A DNA stretch of 64,000 nucleotides from Acidobacteriota bacterium. Its GTDB lineage: Bacteria > Acidobacteriota > Terriglobia > UBA7540. This document shows, piece by piece, positions 5,480-18,632 of this stretch. Where the stretch lies: the NCBI GenBank assembly GCA_004298155.1, contig SCRD01000012.1, forward strand, positions 62,001 to 126,000. The letters are read 5' to 3'. Within the stretch, counting starts at the first letter, position 1. Every line of letters begins with the position of its first letter. The notes below the pieces were generated by a model. It saw nothing but the letters and a program-made list of their open reading frames with translations, did not search any database and was not told the DNA's origin. A program made the position numbers and the translations under genes.

Positions 5480-5602
5480 TACCTGGCTGCAAAGCAAGCG
5501 TCTGCCTCGGCCGCAAGAAAAACACCCCTCACCCGGTCCCGCCAAGCGGAACCACCCTCTCCCCTTGGAGAGAGCAATCATTTTTCTTTGGGGGGCTACC
5601 CG

Positions 5603-7057: not shown

Positions 7058-7134
7058 TGGTTCCTCCCTTTTTGAAGCCTTTCGCGGCGCAGAGTTGTTC
7101 TGAAATCTAGGCTTTTGTTTTTATAAGATAAACG

Positions 7135-7167
7135 GCAGAGTAATCCCGCGCGGCGGGACAACTCTGC
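7135..7167. repeat. Small palindromic element, copy 3
   Basis: A near-perfect hairpin: GCAGAGT (7135-7141) pairs with ACTCTGC (7161-7167), and inside it TCCCGC pairs with GCGGGA around a 3-nt loop. GCTACC follows. It lies 78 bp upstream of the reverse-strand PLP-enzyme start, between two divergent genes. A half-arm (GCGCAGAGTT) recurs at about 7087. Confidence 0.5.
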
Positions 7168-7198
7168 GCTACCAAACTATTCGGGCGGCGCGCGGTTG

Positions 7199-10213: not shown

Positions 10214-10603
10214 ATGTCGCCTGGTATAGCTGTAGCAGTTGTTCCAGAAGAGTATTATCGCAAGGCAAATGGACTCCAGTTCAAGGCGTCCTTCCGCAGG
10301 CGGGAAGACGCCGTCAGGTACGCCGAACAGCATAGCTGCAGGTTGGTTATAGCCTGTGACGCTGAGAGCCGCTATGATGTGCTGTGCGCTCCCGGCTCGA
10401 ATCCGGGACCAAAAGTCAACTTTGAACTGATAGTAGACAGAGGCGAATGGGTGGCTGCGCCACGGCTGGCTCCGCCTGACGGTGAGTTGTCTCGATCGAG
10501 CACAGAATCCGCCCCGGACGCCGCATGGACTACGCGAAAAATAGCCAGGATCTTCATGTACAGTTGGCTCGGAGCCTGGATGGCAGCATCTCCGGCATCC
10601 TGA
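10214..10603 (+). CDS. Hypothetical protein, 129 aa
   Basis: The ATG follows a G-rich RBS (GGGGGAGGGGG, 5-8 bases upstream). The N-terminal half (IAVAVVPEEYYRKANGLQFKASFRRREDAVRYAEQHSCRLVI) looks like a compact alpha/beta fold. The C-terminal half is proline-, serine- and alanine-rich and has no secondary-structure pattern I recognise. No signal peptide. Neighbours (a truncated propeller and an XRE regulator) do not hint at a role. The spacer that follows (10604-11071, 468 bp) shows nothing I can name. Confidence 0.4.
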   Translation: MSPGIAVAVVPEEYYRKANGLQFKASFRRREDAVRYAEQHSCRLVIACDAESRYDVLCAPGSNPGPKVNFELIVDRGEWVAAPRLAPPDGELSRSSTESAPDAAWTTRKIARIFMYSWLGAWMAASPAS

Positions 10604-11071
10604 ACAAATTCTGGCTTTACAACCCGAGTTGACGGAAATCCCGCGGACCTCGAAACCCCAGCTTGCGTTACCTGCTGTTGCGCCGCGACACAGATTGGCG
10701 GTGCGCGCCTCCTATTTTGCAGTCCAGAGCCCTCGCCAGGCTGCTCCAGCAGGGTCGCAGGATCCAGTCTGCGACCGGAAAGCCGTCCGTGCCTGCATGC
10801 GATTGGTGAGCCTTCACAACGGTGGCGCAGGCCCACGAAAACATCTCCGTAAAATCACGGGGCTTGTGAGTCAGGTGTTTTGGCAGATTGACTCAGCAAA
10901 CGACTGAGCCTTCCTAACAACTTGCAATTAGCATTTACCTTTTACGGGCTTTCCCTATCTGTCTTTCAGGGAATTACCGGTCTTGTTTGAAGATTCTTCT
11001 TCGATTGACCTGAGGATGGGATGGGTCCACACTTGTCTTCACGCTATAGGTGCGATTTGAGGGGGTAGGCC

Positions 11072-11728
11072 ATGCCAACTTCACGCATGGAGATTCAGAC
11101 ACAGGTATCGGTTGGGGTGGTAGATGGTGTAACCAACTGCCATATCAGGAGGCAAATCCGGAAGCTTCGGCGCTCCAAGGGGTGGACAGAACACGACCTT
11201 GAGCAAGCCGCGGGAATATCCGCTAATTCGCTGGGTGGGCTGGAAGCGGGAATTCGGCATATTAACGTGGATACCCTGCGAAAGATCATCGAAGCTCTTG
11301 AATCGGACATCACGGATGTGTGGCCGGCGCCCGATGGGGCAGGAAACATGCACAGCACGCCTCCGCCCGGGCAGGCAGGCGATCCGCTTAATTTCGACCG
11401 GCTGACGGAGATACACTCCCTCACCGGAGCGGAAGCATCCTGCATGTTCGCGAGCGAGGACTATCGCGATCTCTCGCATCCAGCCGGAGAACCGGCGCCA
11501 AAGCCTGCGCTTCGGACCCTTTGCGCCATCAATCTGTACGACGACGAAAGGGAGCAGCTATGCCGCGAGGTCCTCCAGGGGACGGTCACGGCTAACTGGG
11601 CCACTTATCGTTACTCTGAGAACGGTCGCAGCTTGTATCTCTGTCTCAAGAATGCCCGTCTTGAGTTCTGGGCCGAGGGCTTTGTCGAGCGCTGCCTTGC
11701 CGCCTGGCTTTCTGCTCCTGCGTTCTGA
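11072..11728 (+). CDS. XRE-family transcriptional regulator
   Basis: A 218-residue protein with a helix-turn-helix of the Cro/C1 type at about residues 26-80: IRRQIRKLRRSKGWTEHDLE, then QAAGISANSLGGLEAGIRHI, then a third helix with LRKIIEALESDI. The remaining 130 residues hold no known ligand domain; the C-terminal 60 residues (CAINLYDDEREQLCREVLQG to FWAEGFVERCLAAWL) appear alpha/beta. GAGGGGG precedes the ATG. It is followed by two convergent reverse-strand genes of unknown function and could regulate them; this is proximity only. Confidence 0.75.
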   Translation: MPTSRMEIQTQVSVGVVDGVTNCHIRRQIRKLRRSKGWTEHDLEQAAGISANSLGGLEAGIRHINVDTLRKIIEALESDITDVWPAPDGAGNMHSTPPPGQAGDPLNFDRLTEIHSLTGAEASCMFASEDYRDLSHPAGEPAPKPALRTLCAINLYDDEREQLCREVLQGTVTANWATYRYSENGRSLYLCLKNARLEFWAEGFVERCLAAWLSAPAF

Positions 11729-11784
11729 GCCGGCAGCAGCGGTTAAAGTCGTGCTAAATCGCAGGGCGGAGGATCTGGGGCTGC

Positions 11785-13842
11785 TTACGCTTCGTGCGTT
11801 CTGGCCCCCAGCCCTGCAAGCACATCATTGAAGATGCGGCTCCCGAAAACCCGGCTGCCCGTGATCAAGGCTTCCATTGCTCCCACTTTGTTTTCGCTGA
11901 TCGCCTGCCGCAGGATCTCGACTGCCTCGCCATAATTGGGAGGGTCACCGCCCATGGGCACCCCCTGCGGTGATGTGCGCAGCCGGCCAATCACCAACCG
12001 GCTTGCCAGCGCGCAGGCCGCCATATCTGCATCATAGTTGTCTGCCATCTTGATCACGCAATTGGTGAAAGTCGCAAAAAGATTGTCGCTGGAAGTGAAT
12101 CCCGTAAGGCTCTGGCACTCGACCGCCACATTCACGCTGAAGTTAAATCCTCCATGTCCCGTGAGGACCAGGGTGGTAGAATCGGCAAGTACGTAATCGA
12201 CGGTTGTTGACTGCACACCCAGGCTGCCGGTGTCCTTGCCTGGCAGGTCTCCAGGCTGTGGAATAGTGGCCGGAACTTTCACGTTGAGCGTCCCGCTCGC
12301 CGCCATGAGTGGAACACCCTCGATCGTCCAATTGAACCTGGGGGCCGTACCCATCAGATGCGCCGTCGCCGAGAGCGTGATCACATCTTCATAGGTGTAC
12401 TCGACATAATGGTAATCCTTGGCCTTGCAAACCATCGAACCCGGATAATGATATACGCCACTGCCGATTTGGATCTCGTTTGTTTCTTCTTCTTTCGCGA
12501 CCTGGAGGCCCACCGATCGTTGCGCATTCTCCGAGGGTGGGGAACTCGGAACGATGCCAAAGAGCGTTAGTCTCTCGGTTAGCACTGAAACGCTCTTCAG
12601 TGCAAAAGCTGACAGTCCGACTTGTTCCGTCTGGTTAATGTTAAGGGGCTTCGTGACCAGCATCGGAGCAATCACGTTGGTTAGAAATTCCGCCACCGAA
12701 AGCAGAACAATCGTGATGGCGGCTGTAATCGGCGATGCCAGCACAGCCGCCACAAAGTAGAGCAGGATGCAGAACCAGCTCACATCCAGGTGCGCATCGA
12801 TCGTCGGGGGGTCGGGGTTCATTTTGAATTGCACCGCGCCATTGACCACGCTCAAATAGAGGTTGCTGCTGAAGTCCGCGACGGCCCGGAAACAATAGAC
12901 ATCGCCGGCAAGGCCACGCACCGCCCGGCCCGTGAGCTGTATCGAACCGTTCTGGAGCGCCGTTTGCAATTGCACGAGCTTCAGTGCCTGTTGCAGCGGC
13001 ACGTACTGTCCGCTTCCACACAGCGGAGGCATGTTGGAGTTCACCAAAGCGGCGTACTGGTCAGCCGTTTCAGTTTTGGGATCAAACTTGGACATCAAAC
13101 TCGATGCAACTCCGGGGCAGAACACCAATTGCTGAAAAGCGTTCGGCGAAAGGCTCACGCATGCTCCCGTGCCGCCGACCAATCCAGGCTCTGTGCGATT
13201 GATCGAAGCAGGCGCCTGTGTCTGCAGCAGCGCCACGCAGAAGACGCCAATCGTGTTGGCATCAATGTTCTGGACCGTTACCGAACGAAACCGCAGCCCG
13301 GATGTTCCGAGCAGTCCGTTTCGGCTGTTATCCGTGTTGAAGTTGAGATGCGCCCTCGGACTATTGCTGGCGAGTATCGAGCTGACCATCAAGGGAATGC
13401 CTGCATCAAGGCTGGCACGATCGCTTAGGCTGAGCTGCCCGAGCGCGGCCTGCGTGTATGCGCCTGAATCCCACGCCAATAAAACCCCGCTTGCCGGCAA
13501 AACCAGGCCTATGTCATTGAGATTGCTGCTGGAGTCTACCACCACTACGTCGATCGTTCCACTGAGGGTGAGCATACCCTTCAACGGCCGGATTGTCTGC
13601 GCTTTGTAATAAACGGTTGAGTCGTCAAACGCAATCGTAATCGTGATTTGGTTCGTCCCAGGCGTCAATGTGACTTGAATGGGGTCAAGGATAATCACGT
13701 CCGCGCCGAGCGACGTGTCCCCAAACTGGATTTCCGTCGGCGCGTCCAGCGCGTTGCCCCCGATCGAGATCTGTCGAATCTGGTCCAGCAGGATTCCACG
13801 GCTCAGCTCAATGACGGCATCGAAGCCCGCGAGGATGCTCAT
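11785..13842 (-). CDS. Unrecognised 685-aa beta-rich protein, possibly TULIP-like
   Basis: No signal peptide. Residues 1-250 are alternating hydrophobic strands; the opening MSILAGFDAVIELSRGILLD, then IQVTLTPGTNQITITIAFDD, recalls the start of tubular lipid-binding (TULIP/P47/BPI-like) domains, a fold guess only. Residues about 345-395 contain a strongly hydrophobic stretch (WFCILLYFVAAVLASPITAA and following) that could be one or two membrane segments. Residues 450-620 are again beta-rich with a conserved-looking Y-H-Y-V-E-Y-T-Y-E-D run. The last 60 residues are helical. It overlaps the 106-aa gene upstream by ATGA (13839-13842), so the two are translationally coupled. GAGGTGCC lies just upstream of the ATG. 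Confidence 0.6.
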   Translation of the reverse strand: MSILAGFDAVIELSRGILLDQIRQISIGGNALDAPTEIQFGDTSLGADVIILDPIQVTLTPGTNQITITIAFDDSTVYYKAQTIRPLKGMLTLSGTIDVVVVDSSSNLNDIGLVLPASGVLLAWDSGAYTQAALGQLSLSDRASLDAGIPLMVSSILASNSPRAHLNFNTDNSRNGLLGTSGLRFRSVTVQNIDANTIGVFCVALLQTQAPASINRTEPGLVGGTGACVSLSPNAFQQLVFCPGVASSLMSKFDPKTETADQYAALVNSNMPPLCGSGQYVPLQQALKLVQLQTALQNGSIQLTGRAVRGLAGDVYCFRAVADFSSNLYLSVVNGAVQFKMNPDPPTIDAHLDVSWFCILLYFVAAVLASPITAAITIVLLSVAEFLTNVIAPMLVTKPLNINQTEQVGLSAFALKSVSVLTERLTLFGIVPSSPPSENAQRSVGLQVAKEEETNEIQIGSGVYHYPGSMVCKAKDYHYVEYTYEDVITLSATAHLMGTAPRFNWTIEGVPLMAASGTLNVKVPATIPQPGDLPGKDTGSLGVQSTTVDYVLADSTTLVLTGHGGFNFSVNVAVECQSLTGFTSSDNLFATFTNCVIKMADNYDADMAACALASRLVIGRLRTSPQGVPMGGDPPNYGEAVEILRQAISENKVGAMEALITGSRVFGSRIFNDVLAGLGARTHEA

Positions 13843-14159
13843 CGTGGCACCTCATCGTTCGCACTTCTTCCTGCAGGCGGCAGGATTCCGTGGATTTTTA
13901 CCGTCAGATGGGTCCTGGCGTTCGATTCACGAAAGAGCGCAAATGCATCTCCGGGAATGCTGGGCAGGCTTCCGGCCAATTTACGCCACTCCTCGACCGC
14001 TCGTGGTGAAAGCGTGACGCCCGCCGCCTCCAGCGCGCGGACCGGGTCAATCAGAAACAAGCGCGCCAGATTCGGCCGCTCATTAAGGCGGGCGGCGGCT
14101 TCCTCCTCGAACGACCTTAACTGTTGGAGATCTTCGACGTGCAACAAGGGGACAGCCAT
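13839..14159 (-). CDS. Unrecognised 106-aa protein, partner of the 685-aa gene
   Basis: A small soluble protein with a strong RBS (GGAGGTGAACC before ATG). Residues 10-75 are helical and contain FLIDPVRALEAAGVTLSP, which resembles the helix-turn segments of leader or docking proteins; the last 30 residues include a beta segment (THLTVKIHGIL) and a basic polar tail. There are no Cys residues and no Ser/Thr-rich core, so a RiPP precursor is not indicated. It is the first gene of the pair and its stop overlaps the next start by four bases. Confidence 0.55.
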   Translation of the reverse strand: MAVPLLHVEDLQQLRSFEEEAAARLNERPNLARLFLIDPVRALEAAGVTLSPRAVEEWRKLAGSLPSIPGDAFALFRESNARTHLTVKIHGILPPAGRSANDEVPR

Positions 14160-14307
14160 GGTTCACCTCCATAACCGAACGACGTATCCGGCAGGCCAGA
14201 TCTGTGACACCATTCGCCGCTACTCTGACGGGCCATGCTCAAAAGGCCAGCATGGCGCAGATTGTAACACATGCTTCAATAGTTATCTCGTTAACTCTCC
14301 AGACTAA
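14158..14307 (+). CDS. Possible small Cys-containing peptide (doubtful)
   Basis: An ORF of 49 codons reads from the palindromic CCATGG that also carries the opposite gene's start. AAGGGG lies seven bases upstream of its ATG. The peptide has four Cys in the pattern C-x10-C-x8-C-x2-C (QICDTIRRYSDGPC, then DCNTCFNS) and no signal peptide. Divergent start codons on one palindrome are unusual, so it could be chance. The rest of the 14160-14969 spacer holds another weak ORF (14684-14920, 79 codons, with AAAGGAG upstream and no recognisable domain) and nothing else I can support. Confidence 0.2.
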   Translation: MVHLHNRTTYPAGQICDTIRRYSDGPCSKGQHGADCNTCFNSYLVNSPD

Positions 14308-14969
14308 TCAGGCACTTTTCATCGCGCTGTTGGGAACTAAGCTGCCAATTGAGCAGGAGGGTGAACCTCTTCATGCCGGCAATTGTTTGCCGTGTGGTTT
14401 CAAATGGCGGGACGGCACCAGGCACATCGCTGTATGGGCGAAATATGGCTGGCTTTAATGAGAGTAAAAGTGTAATGCGCCTCTGCTCAAATTGCGCCGA
14501 ATTCGGTCCGAACGCCACAGTCTCCCGTCTCCAACTCTTTGAAGAATGCCTTTACCGGTTCGTCAGGCTCCACGAGTAAGCTCAGCCTGGAAGTTATCGC
14601 TCCACCAGCGATATTCCGTGGGAGAGTGGTCATCAACGGAGTTGAAGTGAGCGGCTCCTAATGCGAACAAAGGAGTCATGCTAATGCTTTTTATCAAGAA
14701 CTTTAACCTATGCGTTGCATTGACTCTCTCCACGCTTCGAACTACGCTTGAGGCGATTTTTCAACACTGGGTGCAACGGGGCGAGCCGGCATTAAATTTC
14801 CAGGGCCACTGTAAGAAAAACGGGGGAAATCTACACCTGTTGTTGTGGGCCGGTAAGGCCGTCCAGATCCTGCGTCGGGTCATGCCAACATTGGATATTC
14901 TCGCTAGATGGGAAGCGTAAGTGTGCTCCGTTTGAGCGGATCCGGACGAAGAAAGGAGGCATCGCGCAG

Positions 14970-17900
14970 ATGCCGTGCAAAGCCCTGATTTCGACGTTTT
15001 CATCGCCGCCCATTCGCTGGGACCCAAAAAGGAACCGGCTGGCTCATTCCCGGGGTCTAAGGTGGTTGGTTTTGAGCGCGGCATTGGCCTTCTTGCCTGT
15101 AAACGCCCTGGCCCAGGCAAATTTTGCGTCAGTCAGCGGAGAAGTTCTTGATGCTCAAAAGGCTGCAATTCCCGGAGCTACAATAATCCTGACTTCCTCC
15201 GCCACTGGGCTCCGCCGCAGCACAGTTTCGAACGGTACCGGGTTCTATGATTTTACCGATGTGAACCCGGGCGATTACCAGCTTCGCGTGGAAGCGTCCG
15301 GTTTTCAAAGCGAGTTGCGTAACTTTGTACTGGCAGTCAATCAAGTTTTGCGGCTCGATCTCGCCCTGCAAGTTGGCAGCAAGACGCAGCAAGTTGTCGT
15401 GAAGGGGGTTCCGCCTCCGTTACGAACCACGGACGCTACTTTGGGAGAAGTCATTGATCCAACCTTGACAGGTCAGCTCCCGCTCGATGGCCGGCATGTG
15501 CTTGATCTGGCCATCATGGCCCCTGCTACTGCTCCGAACATGGGCATGGGAGTCCAGGACGGAAATCAAAACCAGCTCTATTGGCGGCCGGGACAGGGAA
15601 CTGAATTCACCGCTGCCGGAAACCGTGCGAATGCAAACTACTACCTGCTGGACGGAACGGCGGATTCAGACCCTACGTTCTGGGCCTTATCTTTAAGCCC
15701 TTCACCAGATGCCATACAGGAATTCAAGGTCCAGACCGGGAGCTATTCCGCAGAGTTTGGGGGGGCTGGAGGGGCGCAGGTCAACATGATTACGCGCTCC
15801 GGCACCAATAACTTGCACGGGACCGCCTATGAATACCTGAGAAACACAGCCCTCGATGCGCGAGTATGGAACGCGACCAACGTTCCACACCTCGTTCAAA
15901 ACCAGTTTGGCGCTTCGCTTGGAGGTCCCATCCAGAAGAACAAGACCTTCTTCTTCGCCAACTACGAAGGGTTCAGGTTCAGCAATCAGGTTTACCAGGT
16001 GGAGACCGTGCCCACAATGGCGGAGCGCTCGGGGGACTTCAGCCAGAGCGGGCAAACAATCTATGAGCCCAGCAAGTCCTCGCCGAACCCGGATTACAAC
16101 CCGGCGCTGCCGGTAAGCGCCAGCAACCCGAAAATTGTCCGCAGCCCTTTTCCAGGCAACATGATTCCAACCTCGATGATCAGCTCGGTCGCAGCAGGGG
16201 CGCTTCAGCACGTTCCGTTACCGAACATCGAGATGCCCGGCGGTTCGGGCATGAGAATGGGTATGGGTCCGGTGTCCAGCGGGCTTGACTCGAACAATTA
16301 TCTGGATGTGCGAACGGCGACACAGCCATGGGACGAGGGAACTTTCCGCCTCGACCGGAACTTTGGCGCGGGAGACGCCTTTTTCACCCGGTATACAATC
16401 GAACATGAAAGTGGATTTACGCCGGTCAATCTTCCCGGGTTTGGCCTGTTTAACGACAACATGGCTCAAAATCTGACGATCTCCTACACGCACATTTTTT
16501 CGCCGACCATGATTAATAATCTCTCGTTTGGCATGTCGCGCCTTTCCATGCACGAATATTCTGAGAACAACTTTACTCATGACTATGTTTCAGAACTCGG
16601 AGTTCAAGGGGTCTCCTGGGGGGGCAAAGGGTCTTGGGGAATGCCCTATTTTAATGTCCAGGGTTACAGCCCGATCGGCGACTCTTTCAGTGCGACGCCC
16701 GTCCACGACTGGGACACGCTCCTGCAGGTACAGGACACGTGGAACTGGCAAAAGGGGCGGCATTCGCTGAAGGCCGGCGGAGGCTACCTGCCTTTCTTCT
16801 GGCCCATGTGGGGCTTCTTTCAGACGCGCGGATATTATCAGTTCACGAATGGGTTCACCACACGCACGGCTACGAACGATGGCACGGGGTCAGGCCTGGC
16901 CAGCTTCCTGCTGGGCCTGCCGGTCGTCAAGCAGCGCCAGGCCGGCGTGCCGCAGATGAACCTGAGGCAGTGGTATGGCAACGCCTATGTCGAGGACAAT
17001 TGGCGGATCACAGACGCTACCACGCTTGACATCGGATTGCGCTACGAATATATGAGCTCACTTTCCGACCTGGATGAGCCGGGAGCAAACCTCATTTTTC
17101 GAAACGGCGGCCTCGATGCCTTTGTGGGTGGTCAGGCTGGAATGCCGAGGGGCTTGTGGTATCCCAATGGCCTGAACTTCGCTCCGCGTTTCGGCTTCGC
17201 GCACCAGATTCGCAGCCTGGGAATTGTCTTCCGCGGTGGATTTGGCATGTTCTTTACACCAGTTGACATGAACACCTGGTGCAATCAGCGGCACAATCCG
17301 CCTTACGTTTTTGCTGAGACCCGGCAGAGCGATAATTACGTTCCCAGCCTCTCAGGGTTTGACTTCGCTCCTCCCGTTTTAGGCAAAACTGTAGTCAGCT
17401 TTGCCTCACTCGATCCGCACTCTCATCCGCAGTACATCAATCAATGGAGCTTTTCCGTGCAAAAAGCGCTTCCGGGCAACATCGTTGCGGAGATCGGCTA
17501 CCAGGGTTCGCGAGGCTACCATCTACAGCGGGCCTACCTGATCAACAATGCGCCACCCGGACCAGGACCAGTCCAGCCGCGGCGGCCTTATCAGACCATT
17601 ACGTTCGTTCCCGGTACTTCGTTTGAAGGCGACAATCCGGAGAGCTTTGCCATTCAGAGCAACACGTTTCCCGTTTCGGCCATCAACTATCTGGAAAATA
17701 CTGCCAACAGTTGGTATGACGCGGGTTGGATTGATGCTCGCAGGGAGTTTCACAACGGATTGACCTTTCTTGCGAATTATACGTGGTCGAAGGGCCTCAC
17801 CGACGCGCCTGACTTCCGTTCCGCCATGATGCAAGCCGCTGTCCCGCAAAACAACTCCGACCTGGCCGCCGAGAAAGGGCCTAACGGCATGGATGTGCCG

Positions 17901-18428
17901 CATCGTTTTGTGGCCAGCGTGGTTTATAGCCCGCCAGGATGGGGAGGCGATGCCTTACTCCACCGGCTGACGTCAAGCTGGACCCTCGGGAGTATTTTTA
18001 CCACCGAGGGCGGCATGCCATTTACAGTGGGTGTTTTCGGCGACACGGCGAATGCCGGAACACTGCTTGGGCAGAACCCGATACGCGCCAACGAAACCGG
18101 ACAGCCCGTGTTTCCAACCGGGACACGCACTACCGCGCAATGGTTCAGTCGGGCGGCTTTTGCCGCTCCCGCTCCATACACGTTTGGCAATGCGGGAGTC
18201 AACACCGTCTATGGCCCCAGCTTTACAAACCTCGACCTGGCGTTGCAAAGACAGTTTTCGATCAGCGAGCGCCTCCGTTTCATTTTCCGGGCTGAGGCAT
18301 TCAACGCATTGAACCACAGCAATTGGGGTTATCCTAACAACTATGTGAACACTCCCCAGTTTGGCTCGATCACGATGGCCGAGGGCACGGGCCGGGAGAT
18401 CCAGCTCAGCGCCAGGTTCGATTTCTGA
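14970..18428 (+). CDS. TonB-dependent receptor, Oar-type with carboxypeptidase-regulatory domain
   Basis: A 1152-residue outer-membrane protein. A long n-region and hydrophobic core end near NALAQA (residue 49). Residues 50-145 form a CarboxypepD_reg-like Ig domain (SVSGEVLDAQKAAIPGATI, NGTGFYDFTDVNPGDYQLRV). The plug follows (residues about 150-280; EFKVQTGSYSAEFGGAGGAQ, VNMITRSGTNNLHGTAYEY), then a large beta-barrel ending in ...IQLSARFDF with the aromatic C-terminus needed for barrel insertion. AAAGGAGG lies 10 bases before the ATG. These receptors are greatly expanded in Acidobacteriota, and their substrates (oligosaccharides, peptides or siderophores) are mostly unknown. No SusD partner is adjacent. 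Confidence 0.9.
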   Translation: MPCKALISTFSSPPIRWDPKRNRLAHSRGLRWLVLSAALAFLPVNALAQANFASVSGEVLDAQKAAIPGATIILTSSATGLRRSTVSNGTGFYDFTDVNPGDYQLRVEASGFQSELRNFVLAVNQVLRLDLALQVGSKTQQVVVKGVPPPLRTTDATLGEVIDPTLTGQLPLDGRHVLDLAIMAPATAPNMGMGVQDGNQNQLYWRPGQGTEFTAAGNRANANYYLLDGTADSDPTFWALSLSPSPDAIQEFKVQTGSYSAEFGGAGGAQVNMITRSGTNNLHGTAYEYLRNTALDARVWNATNVPHLVQNQFGASLGGPIQKNKTFFFANYEGFRFSNQVYQVETVPTMAERSGDFSQSGQTIYEPSKSSPNPDYNPALPVSASNPKIVRSPFPGNMIPTSMISSVAAGALQHVPLPNIEMPGGSGMRMGMGPVSSGLDSNNYLDVRTATQPWDEGTFRLDRNFGAGDAFFTRYTIEHESGFTPVNLPGFGLFNDNMAQNLTISYTHIFSPTMINNLSFGMSRLSMHEYSENNFTHDYVSELGVQGVSWGGKGSWGMPYFNVQGYSPIGDSFSATPVHDWDTLLQVQDTWNWQKGRHSLKAGGGYLPFFWPMWGFFQTRGYYQFTNGFTTRTATNDGTGSGLASFLLGLPVVKQRQAGVPQMNLRQWYGNAYVEDNWRITDATTLDIGLRYEYMSSLSDLDEPGANLIFRNGGLDAFVGGQAGMPRGLWYPNGLNFAPRFGFAHQIRSLGIVFRGGFGMFFTPVDMNTWCNQRHNPPYVFAETRQSDNYVPSLSGFDFAPPVLGKTVVSFASLDPHSHPQYINQWSFSVQKALPGNIVAEIGYQGSRGYHLQRAYLINNAPPGPGPVQPRRPYQTITFVPGTSFEGDNPESFAIQSNTFPVSAINYLENTANSWYDAGWIDARREFHNGLTFLANYTWSKGLTDAPDFRSAMMQAAVPQNNSDLAAEKGPNGMDVPHRFVASVVYSPPGWGGDALLHRLTSSWTLGSIFTTEGGMPFTVGVFGDTANAGTLLGQNPIRANETGQPVFPTGTRTTAQWFSRAAFAAPAPYTFGNAGVNTVYGPSFTNLDLALQRQFSISERLRFIFRAEAFNALNHSNWGYPNNYVNTPQFGSITMAEGTGREIQLSARFDF

Positions 18429-18632
18429 CCGTTAATGCTCCGCTTCAGTGGCCGGCCACGTTCCTGACACCCCGGGCCGGGCAGAGATGTCTCGGCAATG
18501 CAGGTCTGCCCGCCACGCGGGCCTACTCCATTTTTCCTCAAGCGCACTTGACTATCTGCTCCTGTCGGGTTTTGTAGTATTCTATGGCCTCGGGGAAGAT
18601 GTGCAATTTTCCCTTCAGGACAAGGAGGTTCG

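What the first reader, a model, noticed from the sequence alone, without database searches (positions are those of the whole stretch)
11785..14159. Unrecognised overlapping gene pair: candidate undescribed system
A 685-aa protein and a 106-aa protein overlap by ATGA. The large product opens with a strand pattern reminiscent of TULIP/P47 lipid-binding domains, has a hydrophobic segment in the middle and no signal peptide; the small one is a helical protein with an L-x-D-P-V-R-A-L-E-A-A-G segment. No family could be assigned, and an XRE regulator lies next to them.
Basis: partly seen in the sequence, partly recalled or inferred. Interest (0 to 1): 0.7.

Follow-up and report, generated by a model that had tools for sequence, protein, structure and literature searches.

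The report
Rare coupled two-gene islet, function unassigned
Two overlapping bacterial genes, a large weakly charged protein and a small helical partner, form a real but rarely found conserved pair that reached no catalogued family, and a close relative lacks exactly this segment.

Summary
The pair is real and lies on the minus strand: a 106-aa gene (14159-13839), then a 685-aa gene (13842-11785), overlapping by ATGA. Neither reaches a curated family cut-off. One homologous pair was found, in genome G157 from another class of the same unnamed phylum: same order, 8-nt overlap, both proteins about 26% identical. None of 38 other family genomes matched; in a phylum draw of 396, only the own genome and G157 gave convincing matches. 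In same-genus G038 the DNA matching the flanking XRE and Oar-type genes lies 107 bp apart instead of 2968 bp, a clean empty site. The XRE gene is convergent and present there without the pair, so it is not part of it. The TULIP/P47 idea stays open: no P47 profile match, and the only model of the large protein was unusable (pLDDT 34.8). The small protein's NHLP/Os1348 match is at noise level. Best guess: a translationally coupled, envelope-directed hydrophobic-ligand-binding protein with a small helical partner, gained as a bare two-gene islet. Gene-level facts are solid; the mechanism is inference.

The parts
13839..14159 (-). small gene, 106 aa helical protein (P0002), first gene of the pair
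   Evidence: homologue P0004 in G157; single-sequence AF2 model with five helices, mean pLDDT 68.8
11785..13842 (-). large gene, 685 aa (P0001), low-charge, no family assigned
   Evidence: homologue P0003 in G157
13839..13842 (-). ATGA stop/start overlap of the two genes
   Evidence: the G157 pair overlaps by 8 nt
12652..12777 (-). hydrophobic segment of the large protein (about residues 356-397); a hydrophobic peak lies at a like position in G157, but the sequence is not conserved
11731..14698 (.). segment missing from same-genus G038 (empty site); nothing recognised in it but the pair

Best explanation
A translationally coupled pair gained as a bare two-gene islet. The small helical protein is made first from the overlapping message and acts as a dedicated partner (chaperone or adaptor) of the large protein. 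The large protein is a multi-block, low-charge, on average hydrophobic, probably beta-rich protein that works at or beyond the cell envelope by binding a lipid or other hydrophobic ligand (works like TULIP/P47 proteins; membership not shown). Shown: gene pair, overlap, same order in two genomes, three conserved blocks, empty site. Inferred: beta-rich nature, partner role, envelope location, ligand binding, gain rather than loss.
For: Same order and overlap in G157. Both homologies beat all shuffles. Three conserved blocks, residues 1-215, 216-345 and 456-585, each 0 of 500 shuffles, with boundaries chosen after seeing the alignment. Charged residues 13.6% and 17.1% against 20-28% for the cytosolic-type genes compared (for example dnaE 26.0%, nadE 24.2%, lyase 20.4%); GRAVY +0.27 and +0.21. 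Empty site in G038 and no match in the 38 other family genomes favour gain. In G157 an Lgt-like (lipoprotein diacylglyceryl transferase family) gene starts 10 bp downstream on the same strand, a hint of lipid handling.
Against: No signal peptide seen by eye, so export is unproven. The AF2 model of the large protein is unusable. No P47 profile match. Low charge is not a clean sign of export: the peptidase-type and PQQ-type genes of the window have 19-23%, while the Oar-type protein and a permease have 14.1% and 9.8%. GC and codon use are ordinary for the window, so no recent gain is visible in composition. Only two instances of the pair; the Lgt-like neighbour is in one of them.
Confidence: 0.35

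Rival explanations
1. RiPP-like reading: the small protein is a precursor (or leader-like carrier) with an NHLP/Os1348-type leader, modified by enzymes encoded elsewhere; the large protein is its carrier or receptor.
For: Sub-threshold match of residues 34-57 to NF038399 (E 0.012, 15.7 bits) and 35-66 to PF14407 (E 0.065, 14 bits). N-terminal part better conserved (20 of 65) than the rest (6 of 36). In G157 a same-strand run of ATP-grasp, luciferase-like, nitroreductase and racemase genes lies upstream.
Against: Scores far below the cut-offs of 40 and 48 bits; P0004 matches neither. A genome search with NF038399 at E<=10 rang in 10 of 14 control genomes, none over the cut-off, so such a score is at noise level. 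No Gly-Gly and no Cys in P0002; P0004 has one Gly-Gly, ahead of the conserved motif, and one Cys near its end. No tailoring genes beside the pair among the window genes scanned. The G157 run ends 365 bp before the small gene, and its luciferase-like member scores best against SfnG, below that cut-off.
Confidence: 0.15
2. Membrane-inserting effector with a cognate small chaperone or immunity protein used against competitors; the hydrophobic hairpin inserts into membranes.
For: Hydrophobic peak at a like position in both homologues (363-381 and 370-388); coupled small-large order; patchy distribution and empty site. A pyocin S8 immunity protein is among the weak structural rows of the small protein (VIA-align Z 2.2, Foldseek E 9.0), not significant.
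Against: The hydrophobic segment is not conserved in sequence (96 of 500 shuffles reach the score) and is much less hydrophobic in P0003 (1.66 against 2.39). No secretion-system gene among the window genes scanned (not every gene was scanned). No PADLOC match.
Confidence: 0.15
3. An old vertically inherited pair lost in most lineages, with a housekeeping envelope role in the few that keep it.
For: GC 0.563 against 0.558 for the window and ordinary codon use; the two homologues are deeply diverged (26%).
Against: Would need loss in all 38 other family genomes searched, both same-genus ones included, and in nearly all of the phylum draw; several of those genomes are incomplete.
Confidence: 0.2

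Closest known systems
P47/OrfX2 and other bacterial TULIP proteins (YceB; proposed DUF4403, DUF2140, DUF2993)
   Same: Family list from passages of PMC6791001
   Different: No profile match at E<=1. Described p47 genes mostly sit in orfX-p47 clusters, near toxin genes in most cases (passages of PMC7020563); here there is only a small helical partner
NHLP / Os1348 / Franean1_4349 leader-peptide clan
   Same: Small helical protein with a P...GV..S element; weak matches NF038399 and PF14407
   Different: Below cut-offs and at noise level in controls; no Gly-Gly, no Cys; partner is a 685-aa protein with no enzyme match. The Os1348 cluster carries a gluzincin/HEXXH gene and a SagB-type gene (passages of PMC7726476 and PMC12636437)
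Small chaperone plus large exported protein gene pairs in general (recalled)
   Same: Small gene first, overlapping start, large hydrophobic product
   Different: No match to any chaperone family in the libraries scanned

Membership tests
P47/TULIP (PF06597) | match to the P47 profile | tested here: not met
   no PF06597 match for P0001 at E<=1 or P0003 at E<=5; 0 of 247 genomes, G000 included, at E<=0.001
P47/TULIP (PF06597) | tubular lipid-binding fold | tested here: inconclusive
   single-sequence AF2 model of P0001 pLDDT 34.8, not searched; no internal duplication seen by hhalign on a two-row alignment
P47/TULIP (PF06597) | lipid binding in vitro | not testable with these tools
   needs purified protein
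NHLP/Os1348 RiPP precursors (NF038399, PF14407) | score above curated cut-off | tested here: not met
   15.7 of 40 bits; 14 of 48 bits; control genomes ring at E<=10 in 10 of 14, none over the cut-off
NHLP/Os1348 RiPP precursors (NF038399, PF14407) | Gly-Gly cleavage site followed by variable core (NHLP, passages of PMC2887384) | tested here: not met
   no GG in P0002; the part after residue 66 is less conserved, 6 of 36 against 20 of 65. Os1348-type precursors may lack a typical double-Gly site, so this weighs against classical NHLP only
NHLP/Os1348 RiPP precursors (NF038399, PF14407) | adjacent modification enzymes | tested here: inconclusive
   none among the scanned genes next to the pair in the window; ATP-grasp/nitroreductase run ending 365 bp upstream in G157
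NHLP/Os1348 RiPP precursors (NF038399, PF14407) | leader fold | tested here: inconclusive
   P0002 model pLDDT 68.8; best Foldseek E 3.1, best VIA-align Z 2.8
Known anti-phage defence systems | match to a PADLOC model | tested here: not met
   0 matches for P0001-P0004 at E<=0.1

The most novel reading that the evidence does not exclude
A previously undescribed two-component family in which a small helical leader-like protein escorts a large lipid- or membrane-active protein out of the cell, spreading between distant bacteria as a minimal two-gene islet.
Probability: 0.25. Interest if true: 0.6.

Novelty: new variant of a known kind. Interest (0 to 1): 0.35.

Why it matters
If the large protein is a TULIP-type or other hydrophobic-ligand carrier, this would be a bacterial branch outside the described families with its own coupled partner, and the bare two-gene islet makes it easy to test. 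If the small protein proves related to NHLP/Os1348 leaders, it would show that fold used as a partner of a large protein instead of a natural-product precursor. At present it is an uncharacterised, rarely found gene pair with a clean comparative anatomy.

Tried and rejected
Homologue hunting: no confirmed relative in genome contigs (P0001, A1), viral contigs (A1, P0003, P0001, A2), plasmids (P0001, P0003, P0004) or phages (P0003 only). The contig scans need matching 8-9 residue words and a tblastn match at E<=1e-3, so they can hardly see relatives at 26% identity; absence there says little. Further profile searches: 1 of 41 (class of G157; G157 itself), 2 of 299 (own class; G000 and the weak G225), 0 of 193, 0 of 149, 1 of 40 (own order; own genome). 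These sets overlap each other and the phylum draw. No phylum but the own could be reached with the genome search.

Weak hits dismissed: G309 (frame is a fumarase-like ORF by eye), G315 (peptidase-like ORF by eye), G225 (MurD-like by eye), G213 (membrane transport-like stretch by eye) and G050 (citrate-synthase-like by eye). G235 was dismissed because its frame holds three stops, without further reading. The Bosea plasmid match to P0002 (E 0.8) lies antisense to annotated genes; the other two rows (E 0.3 and 1) were not opened. PDB by sequence: nothing significant for P0001, A1, P0003, A2 or P0002. Fold searches of the P0002 model only: Foldseek best E 3.1 (complex I chain), VIA-align best Z 2.8 (T4 clamp loader), and a pyocin S8 immunity protein at Z 2.2, all read as noise. 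hhalign of parts of the large protein against each other found no internal duplication (probabilities 0.1-0.2%). DUF7917 match to P0001 (E 0.019, 15.3 of 27 bits, 24 residues) read as chance. No Rfam match in 9-19 kb at gathering scores and no tRNA in the window. No sigma-70-like promoter was found and terminator-like sites were at the shuffled level; the repeats in 11.6-14.8 kb are short two-copy matches. An Ig-like fold at about residues 485-580 was suspected by eye and from a non-significant PDB row (E 1.3); not supported.

Full report
What is there. The finding's coordinates hold two minus-strand genes. The small one (14159..13839, 106 aa, P0002) has GGAGGTG upstream of its ATG. Its stop overlaps the start of the large one (13842..11785, 685 aa, P0001) as ATGA, with GAGGTG just before that start. 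Downstream, 56 bp away, the XRE-type gene (11072-11728, +) ends tail to tail with the pair. Upstream, a divergent gene (14970-18428, +) encodes a large outer-membrane protein with a carboxypeptidase-regulatory-like domain (PF25183, PF13620; called Oar-type here from recall).

Family searches. P0001 has no match in NCBIfam or PHROGs at E<=10 and one sub-threshold Pfam match at E<=1 (DUF7917, 15.3 of 27 bits, 24 residues). P0002 has only weak matches: NF038399 (15.7 of 40 bits), PF14407 (14 of 48 bits) and phrog_1173 (E 0.27). A search of the own genome with NF038399 at E<=10 found only this place (14 bits), and the same search rang in 10 of 14 control genomes, none over the cut-off, so the match is at noise level. 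The G157 homologues match nothing in Pfam at E<=5 or NCBIfam at E<=0.1. PADLOC gave nothing for the four proteins. PDB by sequence gave nothing significant.

Relatives. The own genome holds a single copy. In the family, 1 of 39 genomes matched, the own one. In an even draw of the phylum, 5 of 396 genomes had a match at E<=0.01 with the single protein: the own genome, G157 (E 3.7e-11) and three weak ones dismissed (two of the three read). With the two-sequence profile again 5 of 396: own, G157 and three weak ones dismissed. G157 belongs to another class; 1 of 41 genomes of that class matched, G157 itself. In G157 a 105-aa ORF precedes a 714-aa ORF with an 8-nt overlap, ATGAGTAG. Identities are 26% for both. 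Local scores exceed every shuffle: 65 against a maximum of 48 of 1000 (small, residues 6-51) and 245 against a maximum of 66 of 200 (large). By segment, with boundaries chosen after seeing the alignment, residues 1-215, 216-345 and 456-585 of the large protein are conserved (0 of 500 shuffles each). Residues 346-455, which contain the hydrophobic segment, and 586-685 are not (96 and 431 of 500). The small protein keeps 20 of 65 aligned residues in its first 66 and 6 of 36 in the rest.

Empty site. In the same-genus genome G038, window 10964-11730 (the XRE gene) matches L026 8586-9351 and window 14699-18429 (the Oar-type gene with its upstream region) matches L026 9459-13197, so 107 bp stand where the window has 2968 bp. 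Whether the XRE frame is intact in G038 was not checked. Nothing but the pair was recognised in the missing stretch. In G037 the two flanking genes match on different contigs, so it says nothing about the site. No match in the rest of the family makes gain more likely than loss. Against a recent gain, GC (0.563 against 0.558) and codon use are ordinary, and there is no tRNA in the window and no convincing flanking repeat.

What kind of proteins. The large proteins are acidic (pI 4.77, 4.50), hydrophobic on average (GRAVY +0.27, +0.21) and poor in charged residues (13.6%, 17.1%); the small ones have 25.5% and 23.8%. Among the window genes compared, cytosolic-type ones have 20-28%, peptidase-type and PQQ-type ones 19-23%, and the Oar-type protein, an acyltransferase-type membrane gene and a permease 14.1%, 14.3% and 9.8%. 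The small protein's single-sequence model is moderately confident (mean pLDDT 68.8; the other four models 48-52) and mainly helical, with five helices in residues 11-83. It matched nothing convincing. The large protein's single-sequence model is unusable (pLDDT 34.8). The TULIP reading therefore remains a resemblance by eye: no sequence profile supports it and no fold test was possible. Passages of PMC6791001 name P47, OrfX2 and YceB as the bacterial TULIPs known then and propose DUF4403, DUF2140 and DUF2993. Passages of PMC7020563 report the P47 superfamily in 23 orders, with most genomes carrying orfX-p47 clusters and a few orphan genes.

Neighbourhood in G157. On the same strand upstream lie genes matching RimK-like ATP-grasp (Pfam 20.6 of 21 bits), luciferase-like monooxygenase (best NCBIfam score SfnG, below its cut-off), nitroreductase and Asp/Glu racemase, ending 365 bp before the small gene. 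Downstream, 10 bp after the large gene, starts an Lgt-like membrane protein. None of these families was found among the scanned genes beside the pair in the window, so they are hints only. Os1348-type small proteins sit with a gluzincin/HEXXH gene and a SagB-type gene in Pseudomonas and are taken for RiPP precursors (passages of PMC7726476 and PMC12636437); classical NHLP leaders end in Gly-Gly (passages of PMC2887384). The resemblance of P0002 to that clan is below threshold.

Judgement. The gene pair, its order and its empty site are shown. The best mechanism, an envelope-directed hydrophobic-ligand-binding protein with a coupled helical partner, is inference at about one in three. Literature: listings showed no title that describes this pair, and (TULIP, Acidobacteriota, lipid) listed one unrelated paper. 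That the host is an acidobacterium is my guess from recalled gene content; no tool confirmed it. I did not search for other names of this family, so I do not claim that it is absent from print.

Noticed in passing
L006 7377-8552 (G157, minus strand): Lgt-like protein with an extra Cys-rich N-terminus, starting 10 bp after the large gene; it matches PF01790 only over residues 172-350 of 391.
   Followed up: partly
window about 5519-5594 and 7087-7180: Short intergenic stretches that match many places in the own and same-genus genomes at about 77-97%: they look like dispersed repeat families.
   Followed up: no
L006 11383-14904 (G157, minus strand): Compact same-strand run of ATP-grasp, SfnG-like luciferase-family, nitroreductase and Asp/Glu racemase genes, of unknown product.
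   Followed up: partly
window 10214-10603: 129-aa plus-strand ORF near the XRE gene with no Pfam match at its cut-off; no blastn row over 40 bits to this stretch in L026 of G038.
   Followed up: no
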